A stretch of 62,033 bases of DNA from a virus: IMG/VR virus record IMGVR_UViG_3300043777_000073, positions 1 to 62,033 of that record; one strand, given 5' to 3'. The translations under genes were made by a program, and so were the position numbers. The notes beneath the pieces were generated by a model. The model had not been told where the DNA came from and made no database searches. It worked only from the letters and a program-made list of their open reading frames with translations. Shown here one piece after another: positions 1 to 32,122 of this stretch. How positions within the stretch are numbered: the first letter of the stretch is position 1; each line of letters starts with the position of its first letter.

Positions 1-126
1 GGCGCCGCTCGCGCCGTGGGCGCCGCTCGCGCCGTGGGCGCCGCTCGCGCCGTGGGCGCCGCTCGCGCCGTGGGCGCCGCTCGCGCCGTGGGCGCCGCTC
101 GCGCCGTGGGCGCCGCTCGCGCCGTG
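1..126. repeat. Seven perfect 18-bp tandem repeats
   Basis: The unit GGCGCCGCTCGCGCCGTG is repeated seven times without a mismatch and starts at the first base of the window, so more copies may lie outside. It is in frame with the methyltransferase on the minus strand, where each unit encodes His-Gly-Ala-Ser-Gly-Ala. It falls in the loop that, in this family, lies between the second conserved block and the C-terminal SAM-binding block. Confidence 0.95.
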
Positions 127-2055
127 GAGTTGGCCCGGTGCATCTCGATCGCGGCCAGTCAGTTCACTCCCGTCCACAAGGTCGAAACCATCAAGCCCGA
201 AGTCTCGTTCCCCGCGCGACGGCTTCGCGCAGAAGAAGAAGCGTGCAGCGCCTCCGACATCGCTGCGCGCAGTACCTGGCGAGTCGATGCCACCGAACAT
301 GCCGCCGCCATAATCTGCCCGATGCTCGCCGCCGCCGCTCATACCAGGACGGTCGCCAGATTGTTCGTTTAGGAGCTTGACAGGACAGCTTTCCACGCAA
401 GAGTAGACTTCGCCGACTTCGCCGCGCTTCGTCTGCGCGAGGCTGCCGCGCGTAAAGCCAATCGACTTGACCGGCTGATCGGGTGTGGCGCCTAGAATGG
501 GCCGCACACCGACAACCTCTCCAGTCTTGCGGCATCCGTCCGCATGGCTCAGTGCGATGTGAGCCGGCCAGCGGCCATTCGCCTGCGATTCGAGATACTC
601 CGGCAGCGAGCCAGCCGCGCGCTCGGTATGCAGACCAAAGTCGCCGATGCCGGCCCCGTGACTTGGGTGGCCCAGTCTTTGCGCCACCGCCGCCGCCGCC
701 GCCGCCGCCTTATCCTCTTCGCTGACGTAACCGATCCGGCACGCATCGATGTTGAGCGCGCCAGTTCCATGGCGCAAGACGTTCGCCGCTAGCGTCGGCT
801 CAGAGAGCGGCGCGCGCGCTAGCCACCAGTCCTCGCAGGCCGGCTTGAGCGCAGAGCCCCAGCCGTCCCAGGCCGCCGAGGCCGCCGAGGCCGCCGAGGT
901 AATGGCGTGCCCCGGTTCGCGCATGTCAAGTCCGTAAACATCCGTTTGCACACCGTTCGGACGTCTCGCGGCATATTGGCCTTGCCCGAGCACCGGCCGC
1001 TCATTCGCTTCCGCCAGTGCTTGATATTCACTTGCGAGCGTACCGACCGTGAATGAGATTAGGCTTGCCGCCATGAACTCCGTAGTAGTGGCACTCGTGG
1101 CAGAGGCATTGTCCGTTTCGTGTGTCATGCCTGAGTTCTGGATGTGTTCGGATCGGCTTGATGTGATGAGCTTCCAGTCTTCGAGTAGAGCCGCATATAG
1201 CGCATCGCTTGCCGCCGCCATCGATGACGGCTCGCTTCCAAGCCAGATCTTCAGGGCTGCGGCGCCCCTGAGTCTGTCCGGCGTGACGCCGCTTGGCAAG
1301 TCCAGAGCATCGTTGGGAGCAGTAGAAGTGTCCGTGCGGTCTGCCGCTGTGATTGTCGATGAGCCAACTTTTATATTTTTGACTGATTCTTCCGCATCCG
1401 TCGCATCTGCGCTCCACCATGTGGAAGGCTCGCTTGCATCCGGTGGAGCAGAACATTGCTCCGCTTCGCACGTGTGATGGGCTTCGGTTACCAACGGTCC
1501 CGCACTGGACGCATCGCACGGCAACTTTTCTGGATTGATTCGCTGCGCTGCACGCTCGCGAGCAGAACGGGCCGCGTCTAGCTGGTCCGCCGCAACGCCG
1601 GCACGCGCCGCGTATTCGCCAAACGCGCGGCAGAGCGCCGGTTGATCTACCTCGCGAACCCGCTGCTGCAACCGCACCCACTTGTCCCGCTCCTGTTTAT
1701 CTATATGCTTTGATATGTTAGCGCTTTTCGGAAACCCGCTCGCAAAAAAATGCGCCACTCGATCACGCACATCCCATCCCGCATTCTCGATGGCCATTGC
1801 GGTCCAGTGCGACGTCCTAGGCAGCGCCCACACGAGCGCGTGCGCGCCAGGCTTTGCGACGCGTCGCAACTCCACGAACACTTCGGCTAGCCACGCGATC
1901 CACTGATCGCGTCCGCCTTTATCCTTGTCCCATTCGGCATTCATGAAGGCGATGCCGCTCGGCGGATCGGTCACGATGGCGTCCACGCTCGCGGTGTCCA
2001 TCGTTCGCAGGACTTCGAGCGCGTCGCCGTGGTGGAGAGTCCAGCGAGCGGTCAT
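1..2055 (-). CDS. DNA adenine/cytosine-N4 methyltransferase, partial (runs off left edge)
   Basis: The reading frame starts at ATG 2055 and stays open to base 1 (685 codons), so the stop is outside the window. Residues 8-33 carry the N6/N4 methylase start with catalytic motif TDPPSG (D30-P-P-S). Further on are typical blocks of phage site-specific methylases: HFFASGFPKS, WDGWGSALKPACEDWW, LRHGTGALNIDACRIG and FFFCAKPSRGERDFGLDGF. The C-terminal FxGxG SAM-binding part would follow beyond the edge. The start overlaps the upstream stop as ATGA, so translation is coupled. It probably protects phage DNA against host restriction. Odd points are an out-of-frame HNH gene inside it (1028-1681), an Ala run near 697-716 and SAA repeats near 878-898. 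The roughly 220 codons overlapping the HNH gene show no methylase motif. Confidence 0.8.
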   Translation of the reverse strand, partial: MTARWTLHHGDALEVLRTMDTASVDAIVTDPPSGIAFMNAEWDKDKGGRDQWIAWLAEVFVELRRVAKPGAHALVWALPRTSHWTAMAIENAGWDVRDRVAHFFASGFPKSANISKHIDKQERDKWVRLQQRVREVDQPALCRAFGEYAARAGVAADQLDAARSARERAAQRINPEKLPCDASSAGPLVTEAHHTCEAEQCSAPPDASEPSTWWSADATDAEESVKNIKVGSSTITAADRTDTSTAPNDALDLPSGVTPDRLRGAAALKIWLGSEPSSMAAASDALYAALLEDWKLITSSRSEHIQNSGMTHETDNASATSATTTEFMAASLISFTVGTLASEYQALAEANERPVLGQGQYAARRPNGVQTDVYGLDMREPGHAITSAASAASAAWDGWGSALKPACEDWWLARAPLSEPTLAANVLRHGTGALNIDACRIGYVSEEDKAAAAAAAVAQRLGHPSHGAGIGDFGLHTERAAGSLPEYLESQANGRWPAHIALSHADGCRKTGEVVGVRPILGATPDQPVKSIGFTRGSLAQTKRGEVGEVYSCVESCPVKLLNEQSGDRPGMSGGGEHRADYGGGMFGGIDSPGTARSDVGGAARFFFCAKPSRGERDFGLDGFDLVDGSELTGRDRDAPGQLHGASGAHGASGAHGASGAHGASGAHGASGAHGASGAHGASGA
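1028..1681 (-). CDS. HNH endonuclease nested out of frame inside the methyltransferase gene
   Basis: The 217-residue product has four Cys-pair zinc knuckles between residues 27 and 125 (CRRC, CVQC, CDGC and FCS..C patterns). A classical HNH domain follows: C160-A-I-C163, AHHIKP (H172-H173), N189, then C194-H-E-C197. The start is GTG 1681, and an AGGAG sequence sits 8 nt upstream inside the methylase coding sequence, giving it its own ribosome site. It is in the -1 frame relative to the methylase, which has no stop anywhere across the overlap. The family is typical of free-standing homing endonucleases. The cysteine pattern makes this frame certainly protein-coding. Whether the methylase frame is also used here is open. 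Confidence 0.85.
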   Translation of the reverse strand: MGAVAAAGSRGRSTGALPRVWRIRGACRRCGGPARRGPFCSRACSAANQSRKVAVRCVQCGTVGNRSPSHVRSGAMFCSTGCKRAFHMVERRCDGCGRISQKYKSWLIDNHSGRPHGHFYCSQRCSGLAKRRHAGQTQGRRSPEDLAWKRAVIDGGGKRCAICGSTRRLEAHHIKPIRTHPELRHDTRNGQCLCHECHYYGVHGGKPNLIHGRYARK

Positions 2056-12404: not shown

Positions 12405-13223
12405 ATGGCATTCGGAAAAAAGAAGGTCGAGATCAACTACAATCAAGCCAATGTCGCGATGCTCGCGGCGGATGCACTCAAGAAGTCTAGAGCGGTGCGT
12501 GTCCGCCTGGCACTGCGGCTGACGTTCGATACGCCGCTTCTCATGCAGCGGTGGACGACGAAAGCGGTGCGGCAGATGCTCGGGAAGATGGTGGGCATGC
12601 CCGAGCCGAAGGTCTCGAAGGATCTAACGAAAGACTTCGAGGAGTCGTACTACCGGAACACGAACGGCGAGCCGGTTATCCCGTGCCGCGTCATCAAGGC
12701 GGCAATCGTCTCCGGGGCCATCGCAACGGGAGATGTCGTCACGAAGGCGGACCTCAAGCGAAGCTTGCGGGTCATCGGCTGGACGGCCCCAGTCGTGTTC
12801 AAAGGCGCGAAGACCATGAGCACCATGATCGTTCGCAACAGCGGCGGCCAGCCTGACGTTCGTGCACGCGCGGAGTTCCCTGTCGGTTCAACCGTCGACA
12901 TCCTTGTCGAGTTTGGCGTGCCGCTCACGCCGGACAAGGTGATGGCCGCCATCGAAGCCTCAGGCGTCGCTATCGGCATTGGCGAGTGGCGACCTGAGAA
13001 CGGCGGCGAGCTTGGGACGTTCCACGTCGACATCTTGAAGAACGACAAGGCGGCGCACGACCGAATCATCAAGGCGACGAGCGTGCCGGAGGACGAGTTC
13101 GTGATTCCGCCCGAGATGCTTCGGACGCTGGAGAGCATTCCAGTGGAGAAGCTAAGCGACTCCGCGCGCAAGGTTCGGTCGTTGGCGGATCACATCGGAA
13201 AGCAGAAAAGAACCGGGACTTGA
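12405..13223 (+). CDS. PLLMxR-family protein, locus 1 (possible RAMP-like nucleic-acid binder)
   Basis: 272 residues; AGGAGGG precedes ATG 12405. Marked motifs are TPLLMQR at 43-49, EPVIPCRVIKAAIVSGA near 89-105, RARAEFP near 153 and a Gly-rich IGIGEWRPENGGELGTF at 190-206. The protein at 18792 has the same four blocks (SPLLMNR; KPMLPGENLMACLIAAG; RPRFD; VGLCDFRPARKGVFGKF), so the two are homologous although distant. Similar proteins occur in other phages without a known job. The C-terminal Gly-rich segment recalls the loop of RAMP proteins such as Cas7, but that is inference. A ribbon-helix-helix gene and a 5-nt-phased array follow directly. Confidence 0.8.
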   Translation: MAFGKKKVEINYNQANVAMLAADALKKSRAVRVRLALRLTFDTPLLMQRWTTKAVRQMLGKMVGMPEPKVSKDLTKDFEESYYRNTNGEPVIPCRVIKAAIVSGAIATGDVVTKADLKRSLRVIGWTAPVVFKGAKTMSTMIVRNSGGQPDVRARAEFPVGSTVDILVEFGVPLTPDKVMAAIEASGVAIGIGEWRPENGGELGTFHVDILKNDKAAHDRIIKATSVPEDEFVIPPEMLRTLESIPVEKLSDSARKVRSLADHIGKQKRTGT

Positions 13224-13224
13224 A

Positions 13225-13473
13225 ATGACTCGAGACAAGCAGATCAATTTCCGCGTTTCCGAGGACGAGGCGGCCCGATTCGATCGTGTCGCCGAGCACT
13301 ATGGGCTGGCGATGGCAGCGATGATTCGGATGCTCGTGAAGGAGAAGGGACGATACCATACGGGGACGTCGAGGCAGGCATGGTCTCCACCGGATTGGAG
13401 CGGCAAGGACGGGTTAGGCATGGCAGGCAAGGTTTCCACCGGATCGGAAAGTCCAGCACCGGCATCGGACTAA
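13225..13473 (+). CDS. Ribbon-helix-helix protein, locus 1
   Basis: 82 residues, one base after the previous stop. Residues 5-42 are a CopG/Arc-type RHH: QINFRVSEDEAARF, then DRVAEHYGLAMAAMIRMLVK. The first strand and two helices are complete. From about residue 50 the sequence changes to low-complexity Gly/Ser/Lys, which is simply the translation of the downstream pentamer array, so the natural end may have been near 46. It could bind operators or the array DNA. Confidence 0.75.
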   Translation: MTRDKQINFRVSEDEAARFDRVAEHYGLAMAAMIRMLVKEKGRYHTGTSRQAWSPPDWSGKDGLGMAGKVSTGSESPAPASD

Positions 13474-13758
13474 ACTCCGAACGCATAGGAAGTCAACGGC
13501 TTGGCGAGGCAGGAGTGTCTAGGAGCGGCTTCGTGGGTTCACGAACGGATGGGACCGGCGTGGCAAGGCAGGCAAGGCAGCGATCGAATCGGCGTCGCAT
13601 GGATTGGATCGGCACGTAGGGGTCAGGTATGGCAGGAACGGATAGGATAGGCGCGGATAGGATACGGAATGGATTGGCAAGGCAGGCGTCGATTGAAGCG
13701 TAGAGGATAGGAGCGGCACGTATCGGTCATCACCTGATTGGACCGGCATGGCAGGCAC
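13373..13758 (+). repeat. Degenerate 5-nt-phased GGNNN array, locus 1
   Basis: About 55 GG dinucleotides occur in 386 nt. Successive GG starts lie mostly 5 nt apart, or 10, 15 or 20 where a unit is degenerate; for example 13635, 640, 645, 650, 655, 660, 666, 671, 676, 681. All steps of 4 are GGCAGG. Common units are GGCAA, GGCAT, GGATT, GGATA and GGATC. G is enriched on the coding strand. The part after 13473 is non-coding. It is not a CRISPR array, since there are no constant repeats. Confidence 0.85.
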
Positions 13759-13780: not shown

Positions 13781-14362
13781 ATGAAAAGAGCACCGACGAA
13801 AACGAAGTACAGGTTCAGGCTCATCCAAGACGAGTCACTCGCGCAGCTTGCGGGAGTCGAACTGACGAAGCTGGCAGAACAGCTGAAGGTCAACGACATC
13901 CGGCAGCTAGACGCCGCGACGGTCTGTGACATCGTTCTCAACGACAAGAAGCACCCGCTGAGAAAGCTCCCGATCTGGGGAGACTTCGATACCAAGACAG
14001 CGGCCCGCAAGCACTGGATCGAAACGACGCGTCGGCTCATTTCTGGGATTCAGATCGTGACGTACCATGTCGGCAAACGAGAGCACGTGAGCCCGATGTT
14101 TGTGAGCGCCGAGGCCCCAACGAAGAAAGAAGGGTCGAGGGCGACACGGCGATCGCACGTGATGACGGCCGACAGCTTGGCGCATGACCCGGTATTCATG
14201 TCGGCGGTCGGGACCAAACTGCGGACGATTTTTCATACGCTGCAGAGTTTGGAGCAGTACACGAGCGCGAGGCAGGTCCCCGAGAACCTGAGTGAACTTC
14301 TGGCTACTATCCGAGAGGCGGTGGACGCGTACAACGGAACGATGGCGAGCGAGGCAGCGTAG
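13781..14362 (+). CDS. Hypothetical 193-residue protein
   Basis: ATG 13781 with GTAGGAGG 7 nt upstream. The protein is basic at the start (MKRAPTKTKYRFRLIQDES), then helical, with a long helix near the end. No motif recognised. It is the first gene after the array and may share its transcript. Confidence 0.7.
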   Translation: MKRAPTKTKYRFRLIQDESLAQLAGVELTKLAEQLKVNDIRQLDAATVCDIVLNDKKHPLRKLPIWGDFDTKTAARKHWIETTRRLISGIQIVTYHVGKREHVSPMFVSAEAPTKKEGSRATRRSHVMTADSLAHDPVFMSAVGTKLRTIFHTLQSLEQYTSARQVPENLSELLATIREAVDAYNGTMASEAA

Positions 14363-18436: not shown

Positions 18437-18467
18437 AAACTAGAAGGCCCCAGCCCATCGCTGGGCC
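18437..18467 (-). terminator. Intrinsic terminator for the minus-strand cassette
   Basis: Reading the minus strand: stem GGCCCAGC (18467-18460), loop, and GCTGGGGCC with one bulged base, followed by TTCTAGTTTT. The stem is 8 bp. It would end the transcript that starts at 19674-19702, after the array. Confidence 0.65.
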
Positions 18468-18479
18468 AGGGCCGTCTCC

Positions 18480-18791
18480 TTGCATCACGTCGCGCTACCA
18501 CGCTCAGCAGAGCACTGGCATAGGACGCAGGACCGTGCCACACGAGAACCAGCCACGCCGTGCGCGACCCCGCGCTGCCGGAGCTTGCGCCTGATTGATA
18601 GTTCCCGCCCGAGCCTTCCGACGCGAACGGGAATCCTTGGATTGCATTGCCTGGCCGGACCCGACGACGGCCCAGGGCGCAAGGCCGCACGCGGCGTCGA
18701 CCCGCCACGCAGTGCCGAACCTCGGATGGCATCTCATTGCCGAGCGCCGCGAAACGACACCTGGCGAAGCCCGGCACAGCGCTGCCCTAAT
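18480..18791 (-). repeat. Degenerate 5-nt-phased array, locus 2
   Basis: Between the stop of the PLLMxR gene and the terminator there is no gene. On the minus strand the sequence divides into pentamers that mostly start with G (for example GCAGC GCTGT GCCGG; later GCCAG GCAAT GCAAT). GG starts seen as CC on the plus strand at 18635, 650, 655, 660, 685, 705, 715, 720, 740, 760, 770 and 785 are all in one 5-nt phase. Nearer 18500-18580 the phase shifts once and continues. More degenerate than locus 1, but with the same strand and position relative to the gene. Confidence 0.7.
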
Positions 18792-19409
18792 TTATTCAGC
18801 CGCCGCCGAATGCTCGACGCGGTCCCACCGCTCGACGACGAACTTCCCGAAGACCCCCTTGCGGGCAGGGCGAAAGTCGCAGAGGCCGACTCGTTTCCCA
18901 GCGAGGTCCCATAGCTGCCGGATCGTATTCTCGCCGATCTCGGCATCGTCTAGTTCGATGCGTACGTGGAACGCCCAGCGGTCAAACCGAGGGCGCACGA
19001 TGCAGACCGCTTCGTTGCCGTTCGGGTTGACCCCCTTACGGACGTCGGGCTCCCAGGCGACCGCCTTTTTATCGTTGTCGGGGTCAACGAGCGGCAGCGC
19101 GAAATCCAGCATCGACATGAGTCCCGGCAGGATGGTCGACTTGCCAGTGCTGATCTGCCGCTTCGCGTCGAGGCGCACGAACACGCCTGCCGCAATGAGG
19201 CACGCCATCAGATTCTCACCGGGCAGCATCGGCTTCCCGTCGTGCAAATATAGCTTCGGCTCCGCATCTTCGCGCGGCGTGCGGACATGTCCAATGTCCT
19301 TCGCCTTTGGCTCCTTGACCTTCGTCCTAAGTTTTTCGAGGACGTTGTCACCGACTCGGTTCATGAGTAGTGGCGACGTTCCTCTGCACTTCACTCGAAT
19401 CAACAACAT
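18792..19409 (-). CDS. PLLMxR-family protein, locus 2
   Basis: 205 residues; a GGAGAAGG ribosome site precedes ATG 19409. Blocks: SPLLMNR (12-18), KPMLPGENLMACLIAAG (59-75), QISTGKSTILPGLMSMLDFA, NGNEAVCIVRPRFDRW and the final VGLCDFRPARKGVFGKF (174-190). It is shorter than the locus 1 homologue, which has about 30 extra residues at the N-terminus. Metagenomic phage proteins with this pattern are unannotated. The glycine-rich end with RP and FG resembles nucleic-acid-binding loops, which is inference. Confidence 0.8.
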   Translation of the reverse strand: MLLIRVKCRGTSPLLMNRVGDNVLEKLRTKVKEPKAKDIGHVRTPREDAEPKLYLHDGKPMLPGENLMACLIAAGVFVRLDAKRQISTGKSTILPGLMSMLDFALPLVDPDNDKKAVAWEPDVRKGVNPNGNEAVCIVRPRFDRWAFHVRIELDDAEIGENTIRQLWDLAGKRVGLCDFRPARKGVFGKFVVERWDRVEHSAAAE

Positions 19410-19490
19410 GACGAGCCCTTCTCCCCATATTTCGGGGTGCCGTGGATAACGATGCGCTGAACTACAATGCCAAGCCGTGCGAAGGCTGGC

Positions 19491-19667
19491 CTACTCGTCT
19501 TTGACTTTTCCCTCCCCATGCCGCCTCCGATACTCCGCACGGACCATCCGTCGGAGCACGTCGGCCTTCTCAGTGCCGTCGATATCCGCCAGTAACGCCA
19601 GCATTCGCGTCTCATCCGTGGAAAGACAGAGCGTGAATCTGAAGGGGCGGCGGGCGATGCGAGGCAT
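19491..19667 (-). CDS. Small ribbon-helix-helix-like protein, locus 2 (leaderless)
   Basis: 58 residues, MPRIARRPFRFTLCLSTDET onward, then LALLADIDGTEKADVLRRMV. The strand FTLCLS, the helix TDETRMLALLADI and the helix KADVLRRMVRAEYRR follow the CopG/Arc RHH pattern and match the locus 1 protein in layout. ATG 19667 is 6 nt from the -10 element and has no ribosome site. It is the first gene of the cassette and lies 81 nt before the PLLMxR gene. Probable autoregulator. Confidence 0.65.
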   Translation of the reverse strand: MPRIARRPFRFTLCLSTDETRMLALLADIDGTEKADVLRRMVRAEYRRRHGEGKVKDE

Positions 19668-30919: not shown

Positions 30920-32122
30920 ATGAAGACCCTTCTGTCACTCACCAAGGACCGCGACGACGCTCTCAAGGCCGTGGCTTCGGCTACGAGCGCGGGTGCGCGC
31001 AAGAAGTCGCTTGCCTCGCTCGAGGCCGCGTCGCTCGCTCTGGCCAAGTTCCAGGCTCAGCTCGCATCCAAGGCGGCAGCTCGCAAGCCGGTCGCCGCCG
31101 TCGACGCCGACGAGGAGGATAGCGACGACGAGGAAGAGGAGAGCGAAGAGGAAGAAGAGGAGTCGACCGACTCATCGGACGACGAGCCCAAGAAGCCGAT
31201 GGAGAAGAAGTCCAAGAAGGCGAAGGCCAAGTCGAAAGACAAGGACGACGACTCCGACGACGATGACGGGGACGACGACGACGACGAAGACGAAGAGGAA
31301 GAAGACGAGGAGGAAGAGGACGACGAAGAGGAGACCTCCGACTCCGAGGACGACGACGAGGAGGAAGAGGACGAGGAGGACGACGAAGAGGAAGAGGAAG
31401 AGCGCGCCGCAAGCGCGTCGGCCCTCGCGTCCGCTCGCTCGGTGCTTTCGGCGGCCAAGAAGGCAAACGACCGCCGCGCCATCACCTCGGCCCGCGCCCA
31501 CTTCAAGTCCGTCAAGTCGGCCGTCGCCGCCATGAGCAAGACCTCGGCGCGCTACCACAAGCTCAAGGCCGTCTGCGCCGCTGTCACCGGCAAGAAGGGC
31601 CTGCAGAGCATCCTCGGCGGCATCCAGGGTCTCGCGGTCAAGGCCGCGCAGGAAGAGGCCAACACGCGCGACATCGCCAAGATGAAGGCGGCCTCGAAGG
31701 CCAAGCGCGTGAACGACATGCTCGCGCAAGCGGTCGCCGACGGCAAGATCACACAGAAGACCGTGCCCATCCTGCGCGACGGCATGACCAACACCAAGAC
31801 GCTGCGCGCGTACCTCGGCGCTCTGCCGAAGCTCGTGCGAAGCACCAAGGATCCCGAGCTTGTCGGGCGCACGCTTCGTGGCAGCACGGACGCAACGGCC
31901 GACAAGGACCGCCAGGAAATCCTCGACTTCCAGGCGCTCAGCCCCGACCTGCAGAAGTACGTCACGCAGGAAGCCGCTGCGCAGGGCAAATCGATCGACG
32001 ACTTCATGAAGTCGATGCAGGCCGTGTCGGCGAAGGCTGGCGGCGGCGTGTCTCCCATCGCGGTCAAGCGGGCCGAAGCGGACTTCATTCCCCACCGTTC
32101 GAACGGTGCAGCAGGTCAGTAA
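30920..32122 (+). CDS. Scaffolding protein with very acidic linker
   Basis: 400 residues. A helical start (residues 1-55), then about residues 60-165 are nearly all Asp/Glu/Ser with a Lys patch (MEKKSKKAKAKSKDKDDD). After that a helical region (KAASKAKRVNDMLAQAVADG) and an end LSPDLQKYVTQEAAAQGKS resemble the C-terminal domain of the Mu gpI/Z scaffold family. Separate from its protease, unlike Mu gpI. The acidic run is encoded by low-complexity GAG/GAC codons. Confidence 0.75.
   Translation: MKTLLSLTKDRDDALKAVASATSAGARKKSLASLEAASLALAKFQAQLASKAAARKPVAAVDADEEDSDDEEEESEEEEEESTDSSDDEPKKPMEKKSKKAKAKSKDKDDDSDDDDGDDDDDEDEEEEDEEEEDDEEETSDSEDDDEEEEDEEDDEEEEEERAASASALASARSVLSAAKKANDRRAITSARAHFKSVKSAVAAMSKTSARYHKLKAVCAAVTGKKGLQSILGGIQGLAVKAAQEEANTRDIAKMKAASKAKRVNDMLAQAVADGKITQKTVPILRDGMTNTKTLRAYLGALPKLVRSTKDPELVGRTLRGSTDATADKDRQEILDFQALSPDLQKYVTQEAAAQGKSIDDFMKSMQAVSAKAGGGVSPIAVKRAEADFIPHRSNGAAGQ

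What the first reader, a model, noticed from the sequence alone, without database searches (positions are those of the whole stretch)
13373..13758. GGNNN array: possible two-layer G-quadruplex RNA or ssDNA register
Runs such as 13635-13681 have GG at steps 5,5,5,5,5,6,5,5,5, which permits GG-N3-GG-N3-GG-N3-GG quadruplexes, and the steps of 4 are always GGCAGG. Degenerate units keep the phase (10, 15, 20), as if spacing rather than sequence is selected. It also overwrites the C-terminus of the RHH gene.
Basis: seen in the sequence. Interest (0 to 1): 0.8.

Follow-up and report, generated by a model that had tools for sequence, protein, structure and literature searches.

The report
Phage VIPR guide-RNA array, two loci
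The strange GG-every-five-bases stretch is best explained as a set of guide RNAs of a recently described phage weapon (VIPR), whose protein resembles the CRISPR protein Cas7, and this phage carries a second such system whose array has a different fixed motif.

Summary
The array is real: GG-to-GG distance 5 occurs 28 times against 3.3 expected, with peaks at 10, 15 and 20. It is best explained as the guide-RNA (vrRNA) array of a VIPR system (Viral Interference Programmable Repeat; preprint PMC13142463, 2026), not as a G-quadruplex. The upstream gene (12405-13223) encodes a Vipr-family RAMP protein. It belongs to phrog_4652, its model matches Csm3/Cas7, and its family profile matches the solved SUSP1 Vipr (E 7.5e-44). 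Starting from the protein alone, 111 of 118 relatives carry the array on the coding strand, against 2 of 118 on the reverse strand. The window array parses into six guides of 9-16 pentamers, each ending in GGCA. The first three unit positions are constrained and the last two almost random, as VIPR requires. The downstream gene (13781-14362) belongs to a family found in 108 of 121 protein-first Vipr loci and is a candidate accessory gene. Two things differ from the published text: the fixed triplet here is GG[A/C], not GGY; and the phage has a second vipr (18792-19409, minus) followed by a BGYNN array (18786-18480) that a GG scan misses. No targets were found. Expression and target pairing here are inferred, not shown.

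The parts
12405..13223 (+). vipr1: RAMP (Cas7-like) protein, 272 aa, with a C-terminal extension of about 55 aa
   Evidence: phrog_4652 E 2e-13; family profile A1 hits PDB 36pp SUSP1 Vipr E 7.5e-44; AlphaFold model pLDDT 84.8 matches Csm3/Cas7, best E 9e-8, 146 hits E<=1e-3
13225..13473 (+). small ribbon-helix-helix ORF; its 3' part is read through the first modules of the array
   Evidence: RHH match residues 2-41 only: phrog_4113 E 2.2e-5, NikA-like E 2.5e-4; no RHH at this position in L165, where one sits just upstream of vipr
13373..13758 (+). vrRNA array 1: six GGCA-punctuated modules (13377-13425, 13426-13511, 13512-13570, 13571-13634, 13635-13684, 13685-13753) of 9-16 pentamers, fixed triplet GGM, variable NN
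   Evidence: GG spacing z 13.5; module parse and per-position composition
13781..14362 (+). candidate vap (vipr accessory protein), family of phrog_15946
   Evidence: family found in 70/80 viral, 35/38 genome and 3/3 phage loci that hold vipr; predicted fold pLDDT 89.9 with no PDB match E<=1e-3
18792..19409 (-). vipr2: second, distant Vipr-family gene, 205 aa
   Evidence: phrog_4652 E 1.8e-20; nearest relatives about 29% identical (L066/L096)
18480..18786 (-). vrRNA array 2: 61 units of BGYNN directly 3' of vipr2, missed by a GG-only scan
   Evidence: phase-5 composition z 12.6 in 18788-18639 and z 7.0 in 18590-18495 against shuffles; best BGYNN segment of the whole window, 86 bits, next 23
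18446..18473 (-). terminator-like hairpin (12 pairs plus T-rich tail) just after array 2
   Evidence: fold z -3.8
19437..19491 (-). tentative third short array (11 units) 5' of vipr2
   Evidence: 19.8 bits, not above the background maximum of 23.3; the overlapping stretch is among the five strongest period-5 stretches of the window

Best explanation
13373-13758 is the guide-RNA (vrRNA) array of a VIPR system. It would be transcribed on the + strand with vipr1 and cut, or read in a staggered way, into about six guides, each a row of 9-16 pentamers ending in GGCA. One Vipr subunit (a Cas7-like RAMP) would sit on each pentamer and hold the fixed triplet (GG plus A or C), leaving the two variable bases to pair with double-stranded DNA, with one target base skipped per repeat (NNxNNxNN). 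Bound complexes would block transcription of a competing phage, satellite or prophage; the 13781-14362 product would assist. A second copy (vipr2 plus array 2) on the other strand would work the same way with its own fixed triplet (BGY). Shown here: the array, its modules, the constant and variable positions, the linkage to the RAMP gene, the fold, the second locus. Inferred from the SUSP1 work: transcription, loading, skip rule, silencing. Not found: any target.
For: Array-first: 73 of 120 loci found by an array pattern alone encode a Vipr relative in the held DNA. Protein-first: 37/38 bacterial-genome loci and 74/80 viral loci of Vipr relatives have a period-5 GG array on the coding strand; reverse strand 1/38 and 1/80. 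All 49 flanking proteins match phrog_4652, a library independent of these data; their profile matches PDB 36pp SUSP1 Vipr, E 7.5e-44. The window Vipr model matches Csm3/Cas7. Positive control: SUSP1 itself shows the arrays on both sides of vipr with GGT/GGC. Per-position entropy in window array 1 is 0.78, 1.04, 1.35, 1.96, 1.88 bits, the GGY/NN layout. Module sizes of 9-16 repeats equal the published 9-16. NG86 between window and L165 vipr: dN 0.34, dS 2.26; module contents show no clear homology beyond short, mostly GGCA-centred, matches.
Against: The third position is A in 57% and C in 31% of units, not pyrimidine as in GGY; among 118 loci only L165 and a 4-unit hit share this. About a fifth to a quarter of pentamers lack GG. 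The window Vipr alone gives only E 2.1 against SUSP1 Vipr, so the link runs through the family, and profile A1 contains the window protein. It lacks a tryptophan present in 191 of 194 relatives. No conserved 3' tail separates the modules. No exact NNxNN target of four modules in IMG/VR and none in held DNA. No sigma-70 promoter match.
Confidence: 0.86

Rival explanations
1. A decaying VIPR locus: vipr1 and the array are relics, and the lost GG, the A at position 3 and the lost tryptophan are drift.
For: Degenerate GG, missing near-invariant W, no targets found.
Against: Phase is kept almost everywhere (67 of 70 parsed units are 5-mers), position 3 is never G, the ORF is intact with dN 0.34 and dS 2.26 against L165, and L165 keeps an array with the same consensus and punctuation. 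Neutral drift would bring indels and a random position 3.
Confidence: 0.1
2. A two-layer G-quadruplex RNA or ssDNA element.
For: 30 start positions fit a loose two-tier pattern, more than in any other 386-nt block of the window (median 2, maximum 22).
Against: No G4Hunter score of 1.2 or more, no three-tier motif; GG lost while phase is kept; linkage to a Cas7-like protein; array 2 (BGYNN) has the period without the GG.
Confidence: 0.03
3. An iteron-like DNA array bound by a phage protein (replication origin, partition, or the RHH regulator binding its own gene).
For: Intergenic tandem array beside a small RHH DNA-binding gene.
Against: Iterons keep their bases; here two of five bases are near random. 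The RHH gene is absent from that place in L165 and the constant partner is the RAMP. In SUSP1 such arrays are known to be transcribed and bound by Vipr (PMC13142463).
Confidence: 0.03

Closest known systems
VIPR system of Escherichia phage SUSP1 (type II; PMC13142463, PDB 36pp)
   Same: phrog_4652/Vipr RAMP gene flanked by period-5 arrays with a constant triplet and free NN, 9-16 repeats per guide, an accessory gene nearby
   Different: Fixed triplet GGM (locus 1) or BGY (locus 2) instead of GGY; modules directly joined by GGCA without the SUSP1 tail; unrelated accessory family (A5 profile does not match SUSP1 vap1); two VIPR loci in one phage
Other VIPR types of the same preprint (staggered arrays with overlapping vrRNAs; 'a related consensus')
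   Same: Concatenated guides without long inserts and a non-GGY consensus may fall here
   Different: The supplementary figures that define these types could not be read, so the type of the window locus is not assigned
CRISPR Class 1 Cas7/Csm3 (types III-A and VII)
   Same: Same RAMP fold by structure search; backbone protein that coats a guide RNA at a fixed period
   Different: No CRISPR repeats or spacers and no cas genes seen beside it; period 5 with a constant triplet instead of one flipped base in six

Membership tests
VIPR system | Vipr RAMP protein (RRM core, G-loop, thumb), phage-encoded | tested here: met
   phrog_4652 E 2e-13, family profile to 36pp E 7.5e-44, Csm3/Cas7 fold; window sits in a virus contig with a terminase
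VIPR system | vrRNA of 9-16 tandem pentamers next to vipr | tested here: met
   Six modules of 9, 16, 11, 12, 9 and 13 units
VIPR system | Constant GGY alternating with hypervariable NN ('or a related consensus') | tested here: inconclusive
   Constant/variable layout met; G at positions 1 and 2 in 84% and 79%; Y not met in locus 1 (A 57%, C 31%, T 12%); locus 2 is BGY with Y 96%
VIPR system | Invariable structured 3' tail on each vrRNA (type II) | tested here: not met
   Modules abut; only GGCA lies between them. Array 2 ends in one terminator-like hairpin. The preprint says array architecture varies between types, so this speaks against type II, not against VIPR
VIPR system | vap accessory gene in the locus | tested here: met
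   13781-14362, family co-occurring with vipr in 108 of 121 protein-first loci; that it is one of the named vap1-6 is not tested
VIPR system | Expressed guides bound by Vipr; DNA binding by the 1-nt skip rule | not testable with these tools
   Needs RNA sequencing and binding or reporter assays
VIPR system | Guides match competing mobile elements | tested here: inconclusive
   No exact match of four modules in IMG/VR nor in about 1.8 Mb held; host and its other phages unknown
G-quadruplex element | G-tract potential beyond chance in standard scoring | tested here: not met
   Maximum 25-nt G4Hunter 1.16, no three-tier motif

The most novel reading that the evidence does not exclude
One phage carries two paralogous VIPR systems whose guide scaffolds use different fixed triplets (GGM and BGY), so that each Vipr loads only its own guides: orthogonal versions of the noncontiguous code. 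The triplet read by Vipr1 would have changed together with otherwise near-invariant residues (the lost tryptophan; glycine to phenylalanine near the N-terminus).
Probability: 0.35. Interest if true: 0.75.

Novelty: new variant of a known kind. Interest (0 to 1): 0.6.

Why it matters
VIPR is a proposed forerunner of CRISPR with a new base-pairing code, described this year from two clades. A phage with two diverged copies and two different scaffold triplets makes direct questions testable: which Vipr residues read the triplet, whether codes can be orthogonal, and how much GG a working scaffold needs. It also shows that GG-only scans miss real arrays: a scan for any period-5 composition next to vipr genes finds more.

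Tried and rejected
(1) G-quadruplex: scored, not supported. (2) Sequence similarity of the array to phages and plasmids: no meaningful hits; the array has no conserved bases to find. (3) Single-protein searches of IMG/VR with the window vap and vipr: nothing; the alignment A1 was too diverse for a scan, so the subclade A3 was used. (4) Codon-like signature of the NN dinucleotides: first run looked positive but a uniform model fits the window array better, so it was an effect of GC-rich third positions and is not claimed. Across 163 arrays the N4-N5 pairing fits codon positions 1-2 better than shuffled pairs in 126 cases, which agrees with coding targets for the family in general, not for this window. 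(5) Target search with the 1-nt skip rule: none. (6) Rfam: nothing in the window, no hammerhead in L006/L007 at gathering scores. (7) Fold of the accessory protein: confident model, no PDB relative.

Full report
OBSERVATION. The array is real. GG-to-GG distance 5 occurs 28 times in 13373-13758 against 3.3 expected (z 13.5), and 10, 15 and 20 also peak; flanks do not. Of nine raw steps of 4, seven are GGCA followed by GG and two come from GGG runs. The GGCA steps are regular punctuation: they cut the array into six modules of 49, 86, 59, 64, 50 and 69 nt, that is 9, 16, 11, 12, 9 and 13 units.

HOW IT WAS IDENTIFIED. Sequence similarity finds nothing. Clustering the genes beside those arrays gave one dominant family (58 loci), immediately adjacent to the array and nearly always on its strand, which includes the window gene 12405-13223. 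All 49 aligned members match phrog_4652, function unknown. Their profile matches one solved protein strongly: PDB 36pp, SUSP1 Vipr, E 7.5e-44. The paper behind it (PMC13142463, bioRxiv 2026) describes VIPR: a Cas7-like RAMP that oligomerises on guide RNAs made of GGY/NN pentamers, whose NN bases pair with double-stranded DNA with one skipped base per repeat, used by phages against rival phages and satellites.

INDEPENDENT TESTS. (a) Reverse test: Vipr relatives were collected by protein only. A period-5 GG array lies on the coding strand within about 3 kb in 37 of 38 bacterial-genome loci and 74 of 80 viral loci; the same detector on the reverse strand gives 1 and 1, and other spacings far less. 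(b) The window Vipr model (pLDDT 84.8) matches Csm3 and other Cas7 RAMPs, best E 9e-8. (c) Positive control: the SUSP1 locus shows the arrays on both sides of its vipr with GGT/GGC. (d) Unit composition in the window: position 1 G 84%, position 2 G 79%, position 3 A 57% C 31% T 12% G 0%, positions 4 and 5 at 1.96 and 1.88 bits of entropy. This is three fixed bases plus two free ones, which a VIPR guide needs and a quadruplex does not. (e) The closest relative L165 has vipr, array and accessory gene in the same order, the same GGCA punctuation and the same A/C third position; its modules share little with those of the window beyond short, mostly GGCA-centred, matches, while the vipr genes show dN 0.34 and dS 2.26. 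Phase and scaffold are kept and guide content is replaced.

WHAT DIFFERS. Locus 1 uses GGM, not GGY. Among 118 other loci the median share of A at position 3 is 4%; only L165 (61%) and one hit with four units exceed 30%. Vipr1, L165 and L015 lack a tryptophan found in 191 of 194 relatives, and the first two carry F where 184 relatives have G. About a fifth to a quarter of the window's pentamers have lost GG but keep phase. The SUSP1 tail is absent between modules.

A SECOND LOCUS. vipr2 (18792-19409, minus) is followed on the same strand by a period-5 stretch that a GG scan misses. Its first 150 nt have phase-5 composition z 12.6 against shuffles, and the part 18590-18495 independently z 7.0. 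The consensus is B (never A), G 86%, Y 96%, N, N. A parse gives 61 units from 18786 to 18480 scoring 86 bits; the next best segment anywhere in the window scores 23. The parse model was fitted on the first part, so the z scores are the unbiased figures. A 12-pair terminator-like hairpin with a T-rich tail follows at 18473-18446; one such consensus hit is no more than chance gives in a region of this size, so its position and its fold (z -3.8) are what count. The five strongest period-5 stretches of the 62 kb all lie in the two VIPR loci.

ACCESSORY GENES. 13781-14362 belongs to a family (phrog_15946) found with vipr in 35/38, 70/80 and 3/3 protein-first loci, so it is the likely vap of this type. 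It is not related to SUSP1 vap1 by profile and has no PDB fold match. The RHH ORF between vipr1 and the array is not constant: L165 has an RHH upstream of vipr instead, so the array overlapping its 3' end is probably incidental.

MECHANISM: SHOWN AND INFERRED. Shown by sequence: array, modules, scaffold and variable positions, linkage, fold, second locus. Inferred from SUSP1: transcription, processing at or near GGCA, loading of one Vipr per pentamer, NNxNN pairing with DNA, silencing of rivals. Not found: any target. The host is unknown and only exact matches could be scanned in the large collection, so this is weak evidence either way.

LIMITS. The window Vipr alone gives only E 2.1 to SUSP1 Vipr; membership rests on the family, phrog_4652 and the fold. 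Profile A1 contains the window proteins, so its E-values on the window are circular and are not used as evidence. The preprint's supplement was not readable, so the VIPR type and whether GGM or BGY are already listed there are open. The preprint is not peer reviewed.

Noticed in passing
window 18480-18786 (-) with vipr2 18792-19409 (-): Second VIPR locus with a BGYNN array invisible to GG scans, followed by a terminator-like hairpin at 18446-18473.
   Followed up: yes
window 19437-19491 (-): Possible short array of 11 BGYNN units just 5' of vipr2 (as SUSP1 has one upstream vrRNA); not above background on its own.
   Followed up: partly
L054 6840-7250 (-): GGYNN arrays lie between stretches that look by eye like tRNA 3' ends (GGTTCGACTCC...); not checked with a tRNA finder.
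   Followed up: no
L006 3967-4729 and L007 639-1271 (-): Array modules separated by repeated hairpin-like inserts of about 50-60 nt; no Rfam family reached gathering score there, so not the known hammerhead models.
   Followed up: partly
L035 1994-2378, L082 5632-6052: Arrays with other punctuation between modules (GGCGTTCA and GGCACCGCA) in place of GGCA.
   Followed up: no
L007, L025, L030, L055, L071, L096, L115 flanks: By sequence the neighbours of many arrays look like phage recombination genes (Sak4-like ATPase, RecT-like, YqaJ-like exonuclease), suggesting VIPR often sits in the early or recombination region.
   Followed up: no
window 1-127: Perfect 18-bp tandem repeat, 7.1 copies, at the contig end; possibly a repeat that broke the assembly.
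   Followed up: no
window 31244-31402: Acidic Asp/Glu-type GAC/GAG tandem repeat, probably a low-complexity coding region.
   Followed up: no
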